64,000 nucleotides of DNA from the NCBI RefSeq assembly GCF_000014145.1, contig NC_008255.1, positions 1,551,501 to 1,615,500 of the forward strand, read 5' to 3'. This DNA comes from Cytophaga hutchinsonii ATCC 33406. GTDB lineage: Bacteria; Bacteroidota; Bacteroidia; Cytophagales; Cytophagaceae. The number at the start of each line of letters is the position of its first letter. The first letter of the stretch is position 1. The notes beneath the pieces were generated by a model. The model did no database searches. It had not been told where the DNA came from and saw nothing but the letters and a program-made list of their open reading frames with translations. The position numbers were made by a program, and so were the translations under genes. Below, piece after piece: positions 1-57,666 of this stretch.

Positions 1-3000
1 TCCTGTATTTTTTATAGTGAATGTATACAATGAAGTAGAAGTGTTCATCAAATTAGAACCGATATTGATCGTTGCTCCGTCATTCTCAACGATGGCAGAT
101 GTACTGGTTAAAACCTGAATAACAGATACTGGTGCCGGCGCATTCACGGTTAATGTCTGTGTAACAGCAGGAGCGGCGTTGTAAGTAGTGTTTCCAGCCT
201 GGTTTGCTGTAATTACGGCAGTACCTGCACCAACGATAGTAACCACACCAGCGGAAGTAACCGTTGCTACGGCAGGGTTGCTGCTTGTGTACGTTACGGC
301 TAAACCGGAAGAAGCCGTTGCGGTTAAGCTGAAGCTGGCATCACCAACTGTTTTAGCCGGAATTGTTCCGAATGTAATTGTCTGGTTTGTTTTAGCAGGT
401 GTATTTACCGTTAATGTCTGCGTAACAGCAGGAGTGGCGTTGTAAGTAGCGTTTCCAGCCTGGTTGGCTGTAATAACCGTAGTGCCTGCACCAACAATAG
501 TAACCACACCGGCAGCAGTAACGGTTGCTACCGCAGGGTTGCTGCTTGTGTACGTTACGGCTAAACCGGAAGAAGCCGTTGCGGTTAAGGTAAAGCTTGC
601 ATCACCAACCGTTTTAGCCGGAAGAGTTCCGAAGGTAATTGTCTGGTTTGTTTTAGCAGGTGTATTTACCGTTAATGTCTGCGTAACAGCAGGAGCGGCG
701 TTGTAAGTAGCGTTTCCAGCCTGGTTGGCTGTAATAACCGTAGTGCCTGCACCAACAATAGTAACCACACCGGCAGCAGTAACGGTTGCTACCGCAGGGT
801 TGCTGCTTGTGTACGTTACGGCTAAACCTGAAGAAGCCGTTGCGGTTAAGGTAAAGCTGGCATCACCAACCGTTTTAGCCGGAATTGTTCCGAAGGTAAT
901 TGTCTGGTTTGCTTTGCCAACGGTTAATGTCTGCGTAACAGCAGGAGCGGCGTTGTAAGTAGCGTTTCCAGCCTGGTTTGCTGTAATCACGGTAGTACCT
1001 GCACCAACGATGGTAACCACACCGGCAGCAGTAACCGTTGCTACCGCAGGGTTGCTGCTTGTGTACGTTACGGCTAAGCCGGAAGAAGCGGTAGCTGCCA
1101 ACGTAAAGTCTGCATCACCAACTATTTTAGCCGGAAGTGTTGCGAATGTAATGGTCTGGTTTGCTTTGCCAACGGTTAATGTTTGCGGTACAGCAGTTGC
1201 AGCATTGTAGTTTGCATTACCTGCCTGGTTTGCTGTAATTACGGTAGTACCTGCACCAACGATGGTAACCACACCGGCAGTAGTAACAGTTGCTACCGCA
1301 GGGTTGCTGCTTGTATAGGTAACGGCTAAGCCGGAAGAAGCTGTTGCTGCTAACGTAAAGTCTGCATCACCAACTGTTTTAGCCGGAAGTGTTGCGAATG
1401 TAATGGTCTGGTTTGCTTTGCCAACGGTTAATGTTTGCGGTACAGCAGTTGCAGCATTGTAGTTTGTATTACCTGCCTGATTTGCTGTAATCACGGTAGT
1501 GCCTGCACCAACGATTGTAACCACACCGGCAGCAGTAACCGTTGCTACGGCCGGGTTGCTGCTTGTATAGGTTACGGCTAAACCGGAAGAAGCCGTTGCG
1601 GTTAAGCTGAAGCTGGCATCACCAACTGTTTTAGCCGGAATTGTTCCGAATGTAATTGTCTGGTTTGTTTTAGCAGGTGTATTTACCGTTAATGTCTGCG
1701 TAACAGCAGGAGCAGCGTTGTAGTTTGCATTACCTGTCTGGTTTGCTGTAATCACGGTAGTACCTGCATCAACGATGGTAACCACACCGGCAGCAGTAAC
1801 CGTTGCTACCGCAGGGTTGCTGCTTGTATACGTTACGGCTAAACCGGAAGAAGCTGTTGCGGTTAAGCTGAAGCTGGCATCACCAACTGTTTTAGCCGGA
1901 AGTGTTCCGAATGTAATGGTCTGGTTTGCTTTGCCAACGGTTAATGTTTGCGGTACAGCAGTTGCAGCATTGTAGTTTGCATTTCCTGCCTGGTTTGCTG
2001 TAATTACGGTAGTACCTGCACCAACGATGGTAACCACACCGGCAGCAGTAACCGTTGCTACCGCAGGGTTGCTGCTTGTGTACGTTACGGCTAAGCCGGA
2101 AGAAGCGGTAGCTGCCAACGTAAAGTCTGCATCACCAACTATTTTAGCCGGAAGTGTTGCGAATGTAATGGTCTGGTTTGCTTTGCCAACGGTTAATGTT
2201 TGCGGTACAGCAGTTGCAGCATTGTAGTTTGTATTACCTGCCTGGTTTGCTGTAATTACGGTAGTACCTGCACCAACGATGGTAACCACACCGGCAGCAG
2301 TAACCGTTGCTACCGCAGGGTTGCTGCTTGTGTACGTTACGGCTAAGCCGGAAGAAGCGGTAGCTGCCAACGTAAAGTCTGCATCACCAACTATTTTAGC
2401 CGGAAGTGTTGCGAATGTAATGGTCTGGTTTGCTTTGCCAACGGTTAATGTTTGCGGTACAGCAGTTGCAGCATTGTAGTTTGCATTACCTGCCTGGTTT
2501 GCTGTAATTACGGTAGTACCTGCACCAACGATGGTAACCACACCGGCAGTAGTAACAGTTGCTACCGCAGGGTTGCTGCTTGTATAGGTAACGGCTAAGC
2601 CGGAAGAAGCTGTTGCTGCTAACGTAAAGTCTGCATCACCAACTGTTTTAGCCGGAAGTGTTGCGAATGTAATGGTCTGGTTTGCTTTGCCAACGGTTAA
2701 TGTTTGCGGTACAGCAGTTGCAGCATTGTAGTTTGTATTACCTGCCTGATTTGCTGTAATCACGGTAGTGCCTGCACCAACGATTGTAACCACACCGGCA
2801 GCAGTAACAGTTGCTACCGCAGGGTTGCTGCTTGTATAGGTTACGGCTAAGCCGGAAGAAGCGGTAGCTGCCAACGTGAAAGGTGCGTCTCCGTAAACTT
2901 TAGCTGGTAAGGCTCCGAAGGTAATTGTCTGTGCTGATTTACTGGCTTTGCAATTCGGGAAGGCGGCATTTACAATCGCGTATACGGGTGTTCTTGCACA

Positions 3001-23366: not shown

Positions 23367-23427
23367 ATTGAATAAAAAGTAAAAACAATTCATGTATTTT
23401 AGAATTGTTTTTTACTTTTTATTCAAT
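23367..23427 (+). terminator. Terminator-like long inverted repeat after dnaB
   Basis: About 25-bp stem with one bulge: ATTGAATAAAAAGTAAAAA.. (23367-23391) pairs with 23402-23427, which ends TTTTTTACTTTTTATTCAAT. It ends six bases before the RAYT start codon, so it may also mark that element's left boundary. Confidence 0.65.
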
Positions 23428-23432
23428 CTATT

Positions 23433-24209
23433 ATGACTTTTTACAATAAAAACTCTCACAACAGAAAAAGCATTCGCCTGAAAGGGCGTGATTATTCAAA
23501 ACCAGATCTGTATTTTATTACCATCTGTTGCCAGGACCGTATTTCACGTTTTGGTGAGATCATATATGATGAAATGATTTTAAATCAATTGGGAATCATT
23601 GCGTATAATGAATGGATGAAATTGCCAAAACGATACATGAATGTTGAATTGGACGTTTTTCAAATAATGCCCGACCACATACACGCAATCGTTTCGTTAA
23701 CCAACGTAGGGGCGACCCTTGCGGTCGCCCGTGATAATACAACGGTCGCTGATAATATAATGGTCGCAGGTGATACAACGATCGCCGGTGATAATACAAC
23801 GGTCGCCCCTGATCATACAACGATCGCCGGTGATAATACAATGATCACCCCTGATAATACAACGGTCGCCGGTGATAATACAATGGTGACCAGTGATGGT
23901 ACACGGGCCGGTAATCATCAAACACATGTTCATGATTTGACCGGGCAACCGCAAGGGTTGCCCCTACAGTTTTCGCAACACAAGGCAACGGTAGGTTCAA
24001 TTATTGGTGGGTATAAATCAATTGTTTCAAATGAAATTTTAAAAATATATAAATCTCAAAATGAAATAATGGGAAAATTATGGCAACGGAATTATTATGA
24101 ACATATTATTCGTAATCATGAATCGTATATAAATATTTCCAATTATATTATTGACAACCCCAAACGTTGGAATGAAAACCGTAGGGGCGACCCTTGCGGT
24201 CGCCCGTGA
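23433..24209 (+). CDS. REP-associated tyrosine transposase (RAYT) with internal REP cassette
   Basis: Y1-type (IS200-like) transposase family protein of 258 residues. The N-terminal part (about 1-90) carries the HUH motif PDHIHAIV with His82 and His84. The C-terminal part (about 180-250) has IIGGYKSIVSNEI and WQRNYYEHIIRN..YIIDNP, both typical of RAYTs. Between them lies an in-frame insert of 262 bases: a REP palindrome, about eight copies of a 21-bp minisatellite coding for D-N-T-T-V-A-(G/P/R), a 48-bp linker and an inverted REP. The stop codon is provided by the next REP (..RRGDPCGRP). RAYTs nick single-stranded REP hairpins and spread REP sequences. Whether this interrupted protein is active is unknown. 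Confidence 0.82.
   Translation: MTFYNKNSHNRKSIRLKGRDYSKPDLYFITICCQDRISRFGEIIYDEMILNQLGIIAYNEWMKLPKRYMNVELDVFQIMPDHIHAIVSLTNVGATLAVARDNTTVADNIMVAGDTTIAGDNTTVAPDHTTIAGDNTMITPDNTTVAGDNTMVTSDGTRAGNHQTHVHDLTGQPQGLPLQFSQHKATVGSIIGGYKSIVSNEILKIYKSQNEIMGKLWQRNYYEHIIRNHESYINISNYIIDNPKRWNENRRGDPCGRP
23706..23730 (+). repeat. REP palindrome, copy 1
   Basis: Stem GGGCGACC / GGTCGCCC around CTTGC, preceded by GTAG. Read in frame as VGATLAVA inside the RAYT gene. Confidence 0.85.
23731..23894 (+). repeat. 21-bp minisatellite array A (about 8 units)
   Basis: Units vary around GATAATACAACGGTCGCCGGT. The second half of each unit (ACGGTCGCC) matches the right arm of the REP, so the array probably grew from REP sequence. 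Confidence 0.85.
23943..23967 (-). repeat. Inverted REP palindrome, copy 1
   Basis: Stem GGGCAACC / GGTTGCCC, reverse orientation to the REP at 23706. The G-C pair of the REP stem is replaced by A-T with the matching change in the other arm. Confidence 0.85.
24181..24205 (+). repeat. REP palindrome, copy 2
   Basis: Identical to copy 1. Here it is read in the RAYT frame as RRGDPCGR, and the stop TGA follows at 24207-24209. Confidence 0.85.
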
Positions 24210-24333
24210 TCATACAACGGTCGCCCATGATAATACAACGGTCGCCGGTGATGATACAACGGTCGCCCGTGATAATACAATGATCACCCCTGATAATACA
24301 ACGATCGCCGGTGATAATACAATGGTGACCAGT
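24206..24333 (+). repeat. 21-bp minisatellite array B (about 6 units)
   Basis: Same unit type as array A but 36 bp shorter. Confidence 0.82.
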
Positions 24334-24381
24334 GATGGTACACGGGCCGGTAATCATCAAACACATGTTCACGATTTGACC

Positions 24382-24406
24382 GGGCAACCGCAAGGGTTGC
24401 CCCTAC
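24382..24406 (-). repeat. Inverted REP palindrome, copy 2
   Basis: Identical to the inverted REP at 23943-23967. Confidence 0.85.
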
Positions 24407-24648
24407 AGTTTTCGCAACACAATGCAACGGTAGGTTCAATTATTGGTGGGTATAAATCAATTGTTTCAAATGAAATTTTAAAAATATATAAATCTCAAAA
24501 TGAAATAATGGGAAAATTATGGCAACGGAATTATTATGAACATATCATTCGTAATCATGAATCGTATATAAATATTTCCAATTATATTATTGACAACCCC
24601 AAACGTTGGAATGAAAACCGTAGGGGCGACCCTTGCGGTCGCCCGTGA
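24407..24648 (+). pseudogene. Orphan RAYT C-terminal module, copy B
   Basis: A 213-bp duplicate (24407-24619) of the RAYT 3' end with only a few base changes, followed by REP copy 3, which supplies the TGA. The frame is open from 24151 through array B, but there is no N-terminal HUH domain, so it cannot be a complete transposase. It could be a decayed duplicate or a non-autonomous module. Confidence 0.7.
24620..24644 (+). repeat. REP palindrome, copy 3
   Basis: Identical to copies 1 and 2. Confidence 0.85.
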
Positions 24649-24793
24649 TAATACAATGGTGACCAGTGATAATACAACGGTCGCCCGTGATGATACAACG
24701 GTCGCCCATGATCATACAACGGTCGCCGGTGATAATACAATGGTCGCCCGTGATAATACAAAAAACATCCCTGGTAATACACCTGTGACCGAT
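24645..24793 (+). repeat. 21-bp minisatellite array C (about 7 units)
   Basis: Same unit type, 149 bp, with a diverged end (AAAAAACATCCC, GTAATACACCTG). Confidence 0.8.
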
Positions 24794-24841
24794 GATGGTA
24801 CACCTGTAGGTAATCATCAAACGCATGTTCACGATTTGACC

Positions 24842-24866
24842 GGGCAACCGCAAGGGTTGCCCCTAC
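24842..24866 (-). repeat. Inverted REP palindrome, copy 3
   Basis: Identical to inverted copies 1 and 2. Confidence 0.85.
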
Positions 24867-25108
24867 AGTTTTCGCAACACAAGGCAACGATAGGTTCAAT
24901 TATTGGTGGGTATAAATCAATTGTTTCAAATGAAATTTTAAAAATATATAAATCCAAAAATGAAATAATGGGAAAATTATGGCAACGGAATTATTATGAA
25001 CATATCATTCGTAATCATGAATCATATATGAATATTTCCAATTATATCATTGATAACCCCAAACGCTGGAATGAAAAACGTAGGGGCGACCCTTGCGGTC
25101 GCCCCTGA
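24867..25108 (+). pseudogene. Orphan RAYT C-terminal module, copy C
   Basis: Third 213-bp copy (24867-25079) of the RAYT 3' end, again without stops and without the HUH domain. The frame is open from 24590 through array C. It ends at TGA 25106-25108, just after REP copy 4. Confidence 0.7.
25080..25104 (+). repeat. REP palindrome, copy 4
   Basis: Identical stem. It is followed by only one or two minisatellite units. Confidence 0.85.
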
Positions 25109-25175
25109 TAATACAATGGTGACCAGTGATGGTACACGGGCCGGTAATCATCAAACACATGTTCACGATTGGACA

Positions 25176-25199
25176 GGGCAACAGCAAGGGTTGCCCTAC
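25176..25199 (-). repeat. Degenerate inverted REP, copy 4
   Basis: GGGCAACAGCAAGGGTTGCCC: one C-to-A change breaks the stem and one C is lost before CTAC. It marks the right end of the composite element. Confidence 0.75.
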
Positions 25200-33524: not shown

Positions 33525-34127
33525 TTAGAAAATAGAATTGTCATTTGGAGAGAATAAATCACCTTGAGGTGTTTCATCCTCATCTTCTTTTGGAGTCTCT
33601 ACTGGAGCTGTGTAAGAAAGAATTTCTACTTCCTCATCTTTTTCAACTTCTGGTTTAGCTGCCGGTTTTTTAGGCGCTGCTTTTTTCTTAGGCGCTGTTG
33701 CCTTTTTCGCTACTGCTTTTGAAGGAGCTGCTTTCTTTGCCGGAGCTGATTTCTTAGCTGCCGATTTCTTAGCCGGAGCTGTTTTTTTAGCAACCGCTTT
33801 TTTAACTGCTTTCTTAGCAGGCGCTGCTTTTTTAGCAACCGCTTTTACTGCTTTCTTAGCTGCCTTTTTAGCTGGAGCTGCTTTTTTAACTGCTTTCTTA
33901 ACGGCCTTTTTAACCGCTTTCTTAGCAGGTGCTGCTTTTTTAGCAACTTTCTTAACTGCTTTCTTAACTGCTTTTTTAGGAGCTGCTTTCTTCGCAGTAG
34001 TTACTTTTTTAACAACTTTTTTCGCTGCCTTTTTAACTTTCGCAGCTACTTTTTTTACAGCTTTTTCTGCTTTTTTAAGAGTCTTCTTAACAGAAGATTT
34101 CTCTGCTTTTTTTACTTTTTTTGCCAT
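33525..34127 (-). CDS. Histone H1-like Lys/Ala-rich protein
   Basis: A 200-residue low-complexity protein. Residues 1 to about 155 are almost only Lys, Ala, Val and Pro, in repeats such as KKAAPAKKAVKKA, like the C-terminal tail of eukaryotic histone H1 and bacterial Hc1/BpH1-type proteins. The last ~45 residues are acidic (EVEKDEEVEILSY, PKEDEDETPQGDLF). It probably binds DNA and compacts the nucleoid; the acidic tail may moderate that. The nucleotide repeats make it prone to length change. Confidence 0.85.
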   Translation of the reverse strand: MAKKVKKAEKSSVKKTLKKAEKAVKKVAAKVKKAAKKVVKKVTTAKKAAPKKAVKKAVKKVAKKAAPAKKAVKKAVKKAVKKAAPAKKAAKKAVKAVAKKAAPAKKAVKKAVAKKTAPAKKSAAKKSAPAKKAAPSKAVAKKATAPKKKAAPKKPAAKPEVEKDEEVEILSYTAPVETPKEDEDETPQGDLFSPNDNSIF

Positions 34128-56216: not shown

Positions 56217-56603
56217 TTACTTTAAACTCTGGTCTCCCGCAGAAAATAAAAAACCAATCGGAGTATCTATATCATACAGCCACTCATAACCTTTTGACTC
56301 TTTGTTGCAGAAAGGTTCCAGCAGTCTGACCATATTTTTATATCCCGCAGTTGTAAGGTCGCAATAGAGATGCTTGCCAACAACCTCTTCAATACCCAGA
56401 TCTTCTGCTGCGATTCGTAGCGTAAACAAACAGTTGACAGATTCAACAAAATCTAATGTATGTACATCCAGCGCTTTCTTTTCAGTCAGTACAACTTGTT
56501 GTACAGCATCTCTGAAAGCACGTGCCTGCGCGGAATTAAAGTCTGATAAACGAACGGCATGTTCATCAAATTCATTGATCTGATATAGAAATTCCAATTT
56601 CAT
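56217..56603 (-). CDS. Conserved-looking hypothetical protein
   Basis: A 128-residue soluble protein without signal peptide or membrane segment, starting MKLEFLYQINEFDEHAVRL. It reads as alternating strand and helix (LDVHTLDFVESVNCLFTLRI, HLYCDLTTAGYKNMVRLLEPF). No family recognised. Normal codon use for the window supports it as real. It follows hldD on the same strand behind a repeat/hairpin tract at 56616-56700. Confidence 0.65.
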   Translation of the reverse strand: MKLEFLYQINEFDEHAVRLSDFNSAQARAFRDAVQQVVLTEKKALDVHTLDFVESVNCLFTLRIAAEDLGIEEVVGKHLYCDLTTAGYKNMVRLLEPFCNKESKGYEWLYDIDTPIGFLFSAGDQSLK

Positions 56604-56615
56604 AGGTGTATGGAC

Positions 56616-56666
56616 GTATTGCTATACGCCCGGATTAAGATGTATTGCATACGCCCAGATTAAGAT
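56616..56666. repeat. Two tandem 25-26 bp repeats beside a hairpin
   Basis: GTATTGC(T)ATACGCCC(G/A)GATTAAGAT occurs at 56616-56641 and 56642-56666, and a third start (GTATTGCATAC) runs into the hairpin at 56678-56700. Each unit carries its own small GTAT/ATAC inverted repeat. Confidence 0.8.
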
Positions 56667-56677
56667 GTATTGCATAC

Positions 56678-56700
56678 CCGGGCATATGCAATATGCCCGG
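56678..56700 (-). terminator. Hairpin abutting the hldD stop codon
   Basis: Perfect 10-bp stem CCGGGCATAT / ATATGCCCGG with a GCA loop, directly next to the stop at 56701. No T run follows, so it may be an mRNA 3'-end stabiliser or part of the neighbouring repeat rather than a classical terminator. Confidence 0.5.
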
Positions 56701-57666
56701 CTACCAGTATTTATTTGGTATCAGGTAATTTTTTACATAATCTTTAATACCTTCTTCCAGGGTATGGAATGTATCCGTATAGCCAATGCTTTTAAGTTTG
56801 CCCATATTGGCTTCTGTAAAGTATTGATATTTATCACGGATATCTATGGGCGTATCAATGAAAGAAATATTTTCCGTTACCTCCATATTTTTAAACGTAT
56901 TTTTGGCAAGATCAAGGAATGTTCTGGCTGTACCGCTTCCTAAGTTATAGATGCCGCTGTTTTTGCGGTGATTCATCAGGAAGATGATTACGTTGCAGAC
57001 ATCTTTCACATACACAAAGTCACGCATCTGTCCGCCATCTGTATATTCTGCTTTGTGTGAACGGAACAATTTCATCTTTCCGGAATTTTTTATCTGATGA
57101 AACGCATGGAAGATCACCGAAGCCATTCTGCTTTTATGATATTCATTCGGTCCGTAAACGTTAAAGAATTTTAAGCCTGCCCAGAAGAATGGTTGTTTCT
57201 CCTGTTGTAATGCCCAGATATCAAAATCATTTTTAGAATCACCATATGGATTCAATGGTTTTAATTGCGGGATTTTCTGCTCATTATCATCGTAGCCAAA
57301 CTCACCATTACCATACGTTGCAGCAGAAGAAGCATAGACAAGGGGTATCTGATACTTGATACAGGCGTTCCACATGTTTTTTGAATAGGCAACATTCAGT
57401 CTGTCAAAGATTGCTTTGTCGAATTCAGTTGTATCAGTGCGTGCGCCTATATGAAAGATGAATTCAACATGTTTGTTGTTTTTATCCAGCCAATCGAAAA
57501 AATCATCACGGTCCACATACTCCTGAATCTTTTTATTTTCCAGATTCTTTTTCTTTTCGGGATTTTCAAAATGATCTACTGCAACGATAAAATTAAAATT
57601 CAACTCATTTAAGCGTTGAATTAAGCAGCTTCCGATAAATCCAGCCGCACCTGTAACAACCATCAT
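56701..57666 (-). CDS. hldD: ADP-glyceromanno-heptose 6-epimerase
   Basis: NAD(P)-dependent short-chain epimerase of 321 residues. It converts ADP-D-glycero- to ADP-L-glycero-D-manno-heptose for the LPS inner core. The N-terminal dinucleotide motif is TGAAGFIGSCL, HIGARTDTTE is the HldD signature, and YGDSKNDFD holds the catalytic Tyr-x3-Lys. NLGSGTARTFLDLA and DIRDKYQYFTEA near the C-terminus are typical. It implies heptose-containing LPS. Divergent from the BtuF-like gene. Confidence 0.93.
   Translation of the reverse strand: MMVVTGAAGFIGSCLIQRLNELNFNFIVAVDHFENPEKKKNLENKKIQEYVDRDDFFDWLDKNNKHVEFIFHIGARTDTTEFDKAIFDRLNVAYSKNMWNACIKYQIPLVYASSAATYGNGEFGYDDNEQKIPQLKPLNPYGDSKNDFDIWALQQEKQPFFWAGLKFFNVYGPNEYHKSRMASVIFHAFHQIKNSGKMKLFRSHKAEYTDGGQMRDFVYVKDVCNVIIFLMNHRKNSGIYNLGSGTARTFLDLAKNTFKNMEVTENISFIDTPIDIRDKYQYFTEANMGKLKSIGYTDTFHTLEEGIKDYVKNYLIPNKYW

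What the first reader, a model, noticed from the sequence alone, without database searches (positions are those of the whole stretch)
23433..25199. A RAYT gene that carries, and is extended by, its own REP cassette
The gene at 23433 has a HUH domain (PDHIHAIV), then in frame a REP palindrome, a 21-bp coding minisatellite and an inverted REP, then the conserved RAYT C-terminus. Its stop codon comes from the next REP. The block REP-array-linker-inverted REP-C-terminus is then repeated (units 475, 439, 460 bp) and ends in a degenerate partial unit. Known RAYTs act on REP/REPIN sequences flanking or scattered away from the gene; a REPIN-like cassette inside the reading frame, amplified together with the 3' module, is not something I recall. 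It could be a self-expanding element.
Basis: partly seen in the sequence, partly recalled or inferred. Interest (0 to 1): 0.8.

Follow-up and report, generated by a model that had tools for sequence, protein, structure and literature searches.

The report
RAYT gene with tandem REPIN-and-tail repeats
A bacterial transposase-like gene carries, inside its own reading frame, the small hairpin repeat it probably acts on, and that repeat plus the end of the gene has been copied three times in a row; the built-in repeat is already known for this gene family, but the tandem copying, which we also find in five unrelated loci, seems not to have been described.

Summary
Window 23433-24209 encodes a 258-aa RAYT (TnpA_REP). 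In frame between its HUH and Tyr motifs it carries a REP, a 21-bp array and an inverted REP. The block REP-array-inverted REP-Tyr module then repeats twice more (439- and 460-bp steps) and ends in a REPIN without a module. Quentin et al. [quoted passage not shown] In my survey 91 of 132 RAYT ORFs carry one and 69 carry both orientations; shuffles of a 109-ORF subset (77 and 58 observed) gave about 1.5 and 0. The tandem amplification was not found in the papers I could search. I found it in six loci with different REPs; the tree needs six separate changes. In the five legible cases the layout is N-terminus, REPIN, Y-module, [REPIN, Y-module] x n, REPIN. Most likely mechanism: misaligned recombination or slippage between the in-gene REPIN and the 3'-flanking REPIN. 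The first copy stays intact; later copies lack starts and tend to decay. A RAYT-driven "self-expanding element" is possible but unsupported.

The parts
23433..24209 (+). RAYT / TnpA_REP gene, 258 aa, group 4 / subclass 2.4 type; HUH at P80-D-H82-I-H84, invariant Tyr Y238
23706..23730 (+). REP 1 (GTAG + 8-bp hairpin), in frame, read as VGATLAVA
23731..23942 (+). array of 21-bp (and two 18-bp) units built from the 3' half-stem of the REP plus an AT-rich linker; 0 stops in the gene's frame, 5 and 17 in the other two (counted from REP to inverted REP)
23943..23967 (-). inverted REP 1, in frame
23968..24180 (+). Y module 1 (expressed C-terminal half of the catalytic domain, with Y238)
24181..24205 (+). 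REP 2; codes most of the tail RRGDPCGRP; stop TGA at 24207-24209 lies just beyond it
24206..24406 (+). array 2 and inverted REP 2 (24382-24406, - strand)
24407..24619 (+). Y module 2, 2 differences from module 1, open frame, no evident start of its own
24620..24866 (+). REP 3, array 3, inverted REP 3 (24842-24866, - strand)
24867..25079 (+). Y module 3, 10 differences from module 1, open frame, no evident start of its own
25080..25199 (+). terminal REPIN: REP 4 (25080-25104), short array, degenerate inverted REP (about 25176-25199); no Y module follows

Best explanation
This is a REPtron: a group 4 / subclass 2.4 RAYT with its own REP family. Like most of its relatives it has a REPIN (REP-spacer-inverted REP) in frame in the loop between the HUH half and the Tyr half of the catalytic domain, and another REPIN just past its stop. 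The two REPINs are homologous and flank the 213-bp Tyr module as direct repeats. Misaligned homologous recombination, or template slippage during replication, between the in-gene and downstream REPINs duplicates [Y-module + REPIN], giving N-terminus, REPIN, Y-module, ([REPIN, Y-module] x n), REPIN, here with n = 2. The first copy stays in frame with the N-terminus, so the enzyme is unaffected; later copies are by-products that usually decay. The 21-bp minisatellite grew by slippage of the REP's 3' half-stem plus linker, as in other REPINs of this genome, but with frame-preserving lengths because it is translated. Shown: anatomy, frames, homology of units, recurrence, independent origins, terminal REPIN. 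Inferred: the crossover or slippage itself, that the protein is made and acts on this REP, and the order of duplications.
For: (1) Layout and module homology. (2) The same layout with a different REP each time: L026 (sister species; REP GTAGGGGCGTATTGCATACGCCC; 398-nt unit), L047 (another genus; GTAGAGACGCCATGCTGGCGTCTC; 389), L191 (another Bacteroidota genome; GTAGAGACACGATGCCTCGTGTCG; 335), L091 (Ca. Magnetocorallium; GTAGGGGCAGACCTATGTGTCTGCCC; 309, internally deleted module), and decayed relics in L189. (3) In the five legible cases the series ends in a REPIN without a module, as exchange between REPINs predicts. (4) The six cases need 6 changes on a 132-RAYT tree, at least 4 forced by well-supported branches. 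(5) The precondition is common: 91/132 have an internal GTAG hairpin, 69 in both orientations, 26 also have one within 150 nt of the stop; shuffle control on 109 ORFs: 77 and 58 observed against 1.5 and 0. (6) Dispersed REPINs of this genome also carry 18-21-bp half-stem arrays, and in-gene arrays keep one open frame. (7) The REPIN-encoded residues 92-180 are modelled as disordered, with the HUH core at high pLDDT around them. (8) The dnaB-trxA gap that holds the element is empty in another genus of the family, G003/L196.
Against: No intermediate or recombinant was observed; only one genome of this species was available, so unit-number polymorphism is untested. Synonymous changes are in excess between module copies (33 synonymous, 29 non-synonymous over four pairs; about 25% synonymous expected if both copies were neutral; P about 2e-6). 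By hand, a model of one live and one dead copy predicts about 38% synonymous against 53% seen, so some downstream copies may have been live for a time. Repeated exchange would give that, but so might a function. Three of the six cases fall in one family, which the model does not explain.
Confidence: 0.72

Rival explanations
1. RAYT-driven amplification: the enzyme nicks single-stranded REPs bounding the Y module and copies or pastes the block next to itself, as it is thought to do for REPINs.
For: TnpA_REP of E. coli, Stenotrophomonas and Marinomonas cleave single-stranded REP DNA near the GTAG hairpin in vitro (PMC8266576). Every unit boundary is a REP. The window's enzyme keeps HUH and Tyr.
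Against: A REPIN-bounded block pasted by a transposase should also land elsewhere; all close Y-module copies of this RAYT in the genome are at this locus. Tandem, same-orientation, in-register copies with a homologous terminal REPIN need only recombination.
Confidence: 0.15
2. Downstream modules are a reservoir of silent C-terminal cassettes that recombine into the expressed gene and diversify the Tyr half.
For: Downstream modules are open over their full length in the window (two), L026 and L191. Synonymous excess between copies.
Against: In the window the modules differ little. L047 is frame-broken, L091 internally deleted, L189 a relic; the L191 and L047 copies have each lost an invariant Trp. 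No start codon or mechanism for directed exchange was seen.
Confidence: 0.07
3. Programmed frameshifting joins the units into longer proteins with several Tyr modules.
For: The array frame of unit 2 is open upstream of the gene's stop (ORF from 24151), so the frames overlap by about 58 nt.
Against: Unit lengths of 439 and 460 are 1 mod 3, so each unit would need its own frameshift; no slippery site was looked for systematically or noted; other loci have broken units.
Confidence: 0.02
4. Assembly artefact.
For: Repeats over 200 bp can be mis-assembled.
Against: Units differ in sequence and array length; single-contig genome; the same layout occurs in five unrelated assemblies.
Confidence: 0.02

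Closest known systems
TnpA_REP subclass 2.4 (Quentin et al. 2018, PMC6006769) = RAYT group 4 of Bertels et al.
   Same: Variable insertion with short repeats between the HuH and Y halves, in-frame REPs inside the gene, flanking REPs, abundance in Bacteroidetes and Cyanobacteria, no extra C-terminal domain.
   Different: The window adds a tandem series of [REPIN + Y module] downstream; the passages of that paper that I read do not mention it (its supplementary figure S10 could not be read).
REPtrons and GTAG REPs (Di Nocera et al. 2013, PMC3733652)
   Same: GTAG at the foot of a hairpin, REPs overlapping RAYT ends and supplying stops, REPs inside coding genes.
   Different: The section on RAYT genes does not describe duplicated gene parts between REPs.
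REPINs (Bertels and Rainey 2011, PMC3116915)
   Same: Two REPs in inverted orientation as a unit, associated with a RAYT (from abstract and own knowledge).
   Different: Here the spacer is a half-stem minisatellite, the copy number is low (26 REP matches in the genome), and a REPIN sits in the gene.
Rickettsia palindromic elements (as cited in PMC3733652)
   Same: Palindromic repeats inserted in frame in coding genes.
   Different: Not linked there to a transposase that carries its own repeat; no amplification of a gene part.

Membership tests
RAYT / TnpA_REP | HUH motif and a single catalytic Tyr in a Y1 fold | tested here: met
   H82, H84 and Y238 invariant in 35 RAYTs; Foldseek to 4ER8 E 3.8e-5 and to IS608/ISDra2 transposases
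RAYT / TnpA_REP | curated family model | tested here: inconclusive
   NCBIfam REP_Tyr_transpos is the best hit, 59.3 bits, below the 80-bit cut-off; the match is split by the insert; Pfam Y1_Tnp above cut-off
RAYT / TnpA_REP | gene flanked by REPs that are also dispersed in the genome | tested here: met
   26 matches to the REP consensus, 0 in the reversed control, 7 of them at the locus
RAYT / TnpA_REP | REP binding and cleavage by the protein | not testable with these tools
   needs biochemistry
TnpA_REP subclass 2.4 / RAYT group 4 | variable insertion between beta3 and alphaC | tested here: met
   residues 92-180 lie between strand 82-89 and helix 187-208
TnpA_REP subclass 2.4 / RAYT group 4 | REP inserted in frame between HuH and Y motifs | tested here: met
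TnpA_REP subclass 2.4 / RAYT group 4 | no conserved C-terminal extension after the core | tested here: met
   the protein ends 12 residues after W246, the last invariant residue
TnpA_REP subclass 2.4 / RAYT group 4 | placement in the published subclass tree | not tested
   the published sequence set was not available
REPIN | two REPs in inverted orientation as one unit, found as a population in the genome | tested here: met
   inverted pairs at G000 3335270/3335402, 3501645/3501780, 929779/929812, 3346795/3346930; a small population
REPIN | mobility | not testable with these tools
   one genome of the species only

The most novel reading that the evidence does not exclude
The in-gene REPIN is not only a passenger of the gene. 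By giving the RAYT direct repeats around its Tyr module it makes the gene a built-in amplifier, so that group 4 RAYTs recurrently and actively (with their own nicking) throw off tandem Y modules, some of which stay exchangeable with the expressed one.
Probability: 0.13. Interest if true: 0.65.

Novelty: new variant of a known kind. Interest (0 to 1): 0.42.

Why it matters
How REPs and REPINs spread, and what RAYTs do for the cell, is open. A gene family that carries its presumed substrate inside its own reading frame, in the disordered loop between its two catalytic halves, and that in several unrelated lineages has duplicated one half between those substrates, gives natural, scorable loci. 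Unit number at these sites can be followed to ask whether the RAYT promotes rearrangement at REPs or whether ordinary recombination suffices. It also warns annotators that 'partial transposase' hits next to RAYTs may be REPIN-bounded module copies.

Tried and rejected
The antifreeze-like beta-roll match of the array (Pfam LbR_Ice_bind E 0.0013, below cut-off; PDB 3ult E 8e-4) was rejected as a chance match of a 7-residue repeat: AlphaFold gives the stretch pLDDT of about 50 with no strands. L030 (two whole RAYT genes in tandem) and L033 (a REP cluster) were set aside as different events. The AT-rich hairpin at 23367-23427 was considered as an element end but is not repeated in the genome. Paper searches for a prior description of tandem modules found none; subscription papers and supplementary files were not searchable.

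Full report
OBSERVATION. The window carries a 258-aa ORF at 23433-24209 with PDHIH and an invariant Tyr (Y238). REP 25-mers GTAGGGGCGACCCTTGCGGTCGCCC occur at 23706, 24181, 24620 and 25080, and inverted REPs (GTAGGGGCAACCCTTGCGGTTGCCC on the minus strand) at 23943, 24382 and 24842; 7 matches against 0 in shuffles. Each REP folds as GTAG plus an 8-bp hairpin (DNA parameters, z -4.7 and -3.5). Between REP and inverted REP is an array of 21-bp units (two 18-bp steps in the first array), followed after the inverted REP by a 213-bp module that encodes the C-terminal half of the catalytic domain. The block recurs at steps of 439 and 460 and ends at 25080-25199 in a REPIN that no module follows. The gene's frame runs through REP, array, inverted REP and module without a stop, while the other two frames of the first REPIN have 5 and 17 stops. 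The stop TGA (24207-24209) is just 3' of REP 2. Because units are 1 mod 3, later modules are not in frame with the gene.

IDENTITY. Pfam Y1_Tnp (above cut-off, split) and NCBIfam REP-associated tyrosine transposase (best hit, below cut-off, split) agree. An AlphaFold model from 35 aligned relatives has a confident core (block means above 88 at residues 21-89 and above 80 at 181-250) and a disordered stretch at about 92-180, which is the REPIN-encoded part. Foldseek finds IS200/IS605 transposases and the E. coli TnpA_REP-REP complex 4ER8.

GENOME. The window lies in a single 4,433,218-bp contig. The REP consensus has 26 matches, none in the reversed control; 7 are at the locus, and several of the others form inverted pairs. 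Three dispersed REP sites that I read also have tandem half-stem arrays of 18-21 bp, so the minisatellite is part of how REPINs look here, not peculiar to the gene. A second RAYT at 2608190-2608741 carries its own, different in-gene REP (GTAGGGGCGAATTGCATTCGCCC), which again is dispersed in further copies. The element sits between dnaB and trxA; in genome G003 of the same family these genes are neighbours with a few tens of nucleotides between them.

HOW COMMON. Among 132 distinct RAYT ORFs gathered from the order, the phylum and the public genomes (Bacteroidota, Chloroflexi, Deltaproteobacteria, Patescibacteria and others), 91 carry a GTAG hairpin in frame between HUH and Tyr motifs, 69 in both orientations. 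On the first 109 the counts were 77 and 58, against 1.5 and 0 in dinucleotide shuffles. The set is biased towards relatives of the query. This agrees with Quentin et al. [quoted passage not shown]).

THE TANDEM PART. Extra Y modules downstream of a RAYT occur in six loci. In the window n = 2. L026 (other species of the genus), L047 (other genus of the family), L191 (a Bacteroidota genome outside the order) and L091 (Ca. Magnetocorallium) have n = 1; L189 has decayed relics. Each of the five legible loci uses a different REP, each unit boundary is a REP, and each series ends in a REPIN without a module. A tree of the conserved core of 132 RAYTs needs six changes for the six cases, at least four forced by well-supported branches. 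The events are therefore recurrent.

MECHANISM. In-gene REPIN and 3' REPIN are direct repeats around the Y module. Misaligned exchange or slippage between them gives the observed series, including the terminal REPIN, and leaves the expressed gene intact. RAYT nicking at REPs could raise the rate, since TnpA_REP enzymes cut and join single-stranded REP DNA in vitro (PMC8266576), but nothing here requires it. Downstream modules have no evident start; L047 is frame-broken, L091 deleted, L189 a relic, and two copies have lost an invariant Trp. Against a pure 'dead copy' reading, the changes between copies are enriched for synonymous ones (33 of 62), more than one live and one dead copy would give by my hand estimate. 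Repeated exchange between positions is one explanation. This remains the open point.

LITERATURE. Four searches of the open library and the RAYT section of Di Nocera et al. 2013 (PMC3733652) show no description of tandem REPIN plus Y-module copies. Subscription papers and supplements were not available.

VERDICT. Confirmed observation; interpretation partly supported; a new variant (recurrent tandem modules) of a known kind (RAYT with internal REPs).

Noticed in passing
window 56600-56702: Intergenic REP-like element of another family (GTATTGCATACGCCC, 25-bp tandem units, then an inverted copy ending GGCTAC), again a REPIN-like element with a half-stem array as spacer.
   Followed up: partly
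L021 / G000:C1 2608190-2608741 (-): Second RAYT of the genome, with a different in-frame REP that matches a second dispersed REP family of the same genome: one RAYT, one REP type each.
   Followed up: partly
window 23367-23427: AT-rich near-perfect hairpin (19-nt perfect arms) ending a few bases before the RAYT start codon; unique in the genome; could be the dnaB terminator or affect RAYT translation.
   Followed up: partly
window 197-2882: About 10 tandem copies of a 252-bp unit (91% matches), perhaps a repetitive surface protein.
   Followed up: no
window 33765-34037: Imperfect 12-69-bp tandem repeats, probably coding for a low-complexity protein.
   Followed up: no
window 23731-23942, translated: The 7-residue repeat encoded by the array resembles the grass ice-binding beta roll (PF21300 below cut-off, PDB 3ult E 8e-4); the model is disordered there, so probably chance.
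   Followed up: yes
L030 (G057:C2 428240-429434): Two whole RAYT genes in tandem, nearly identical over the inserted REPIN and Y module.
   Followed up: no
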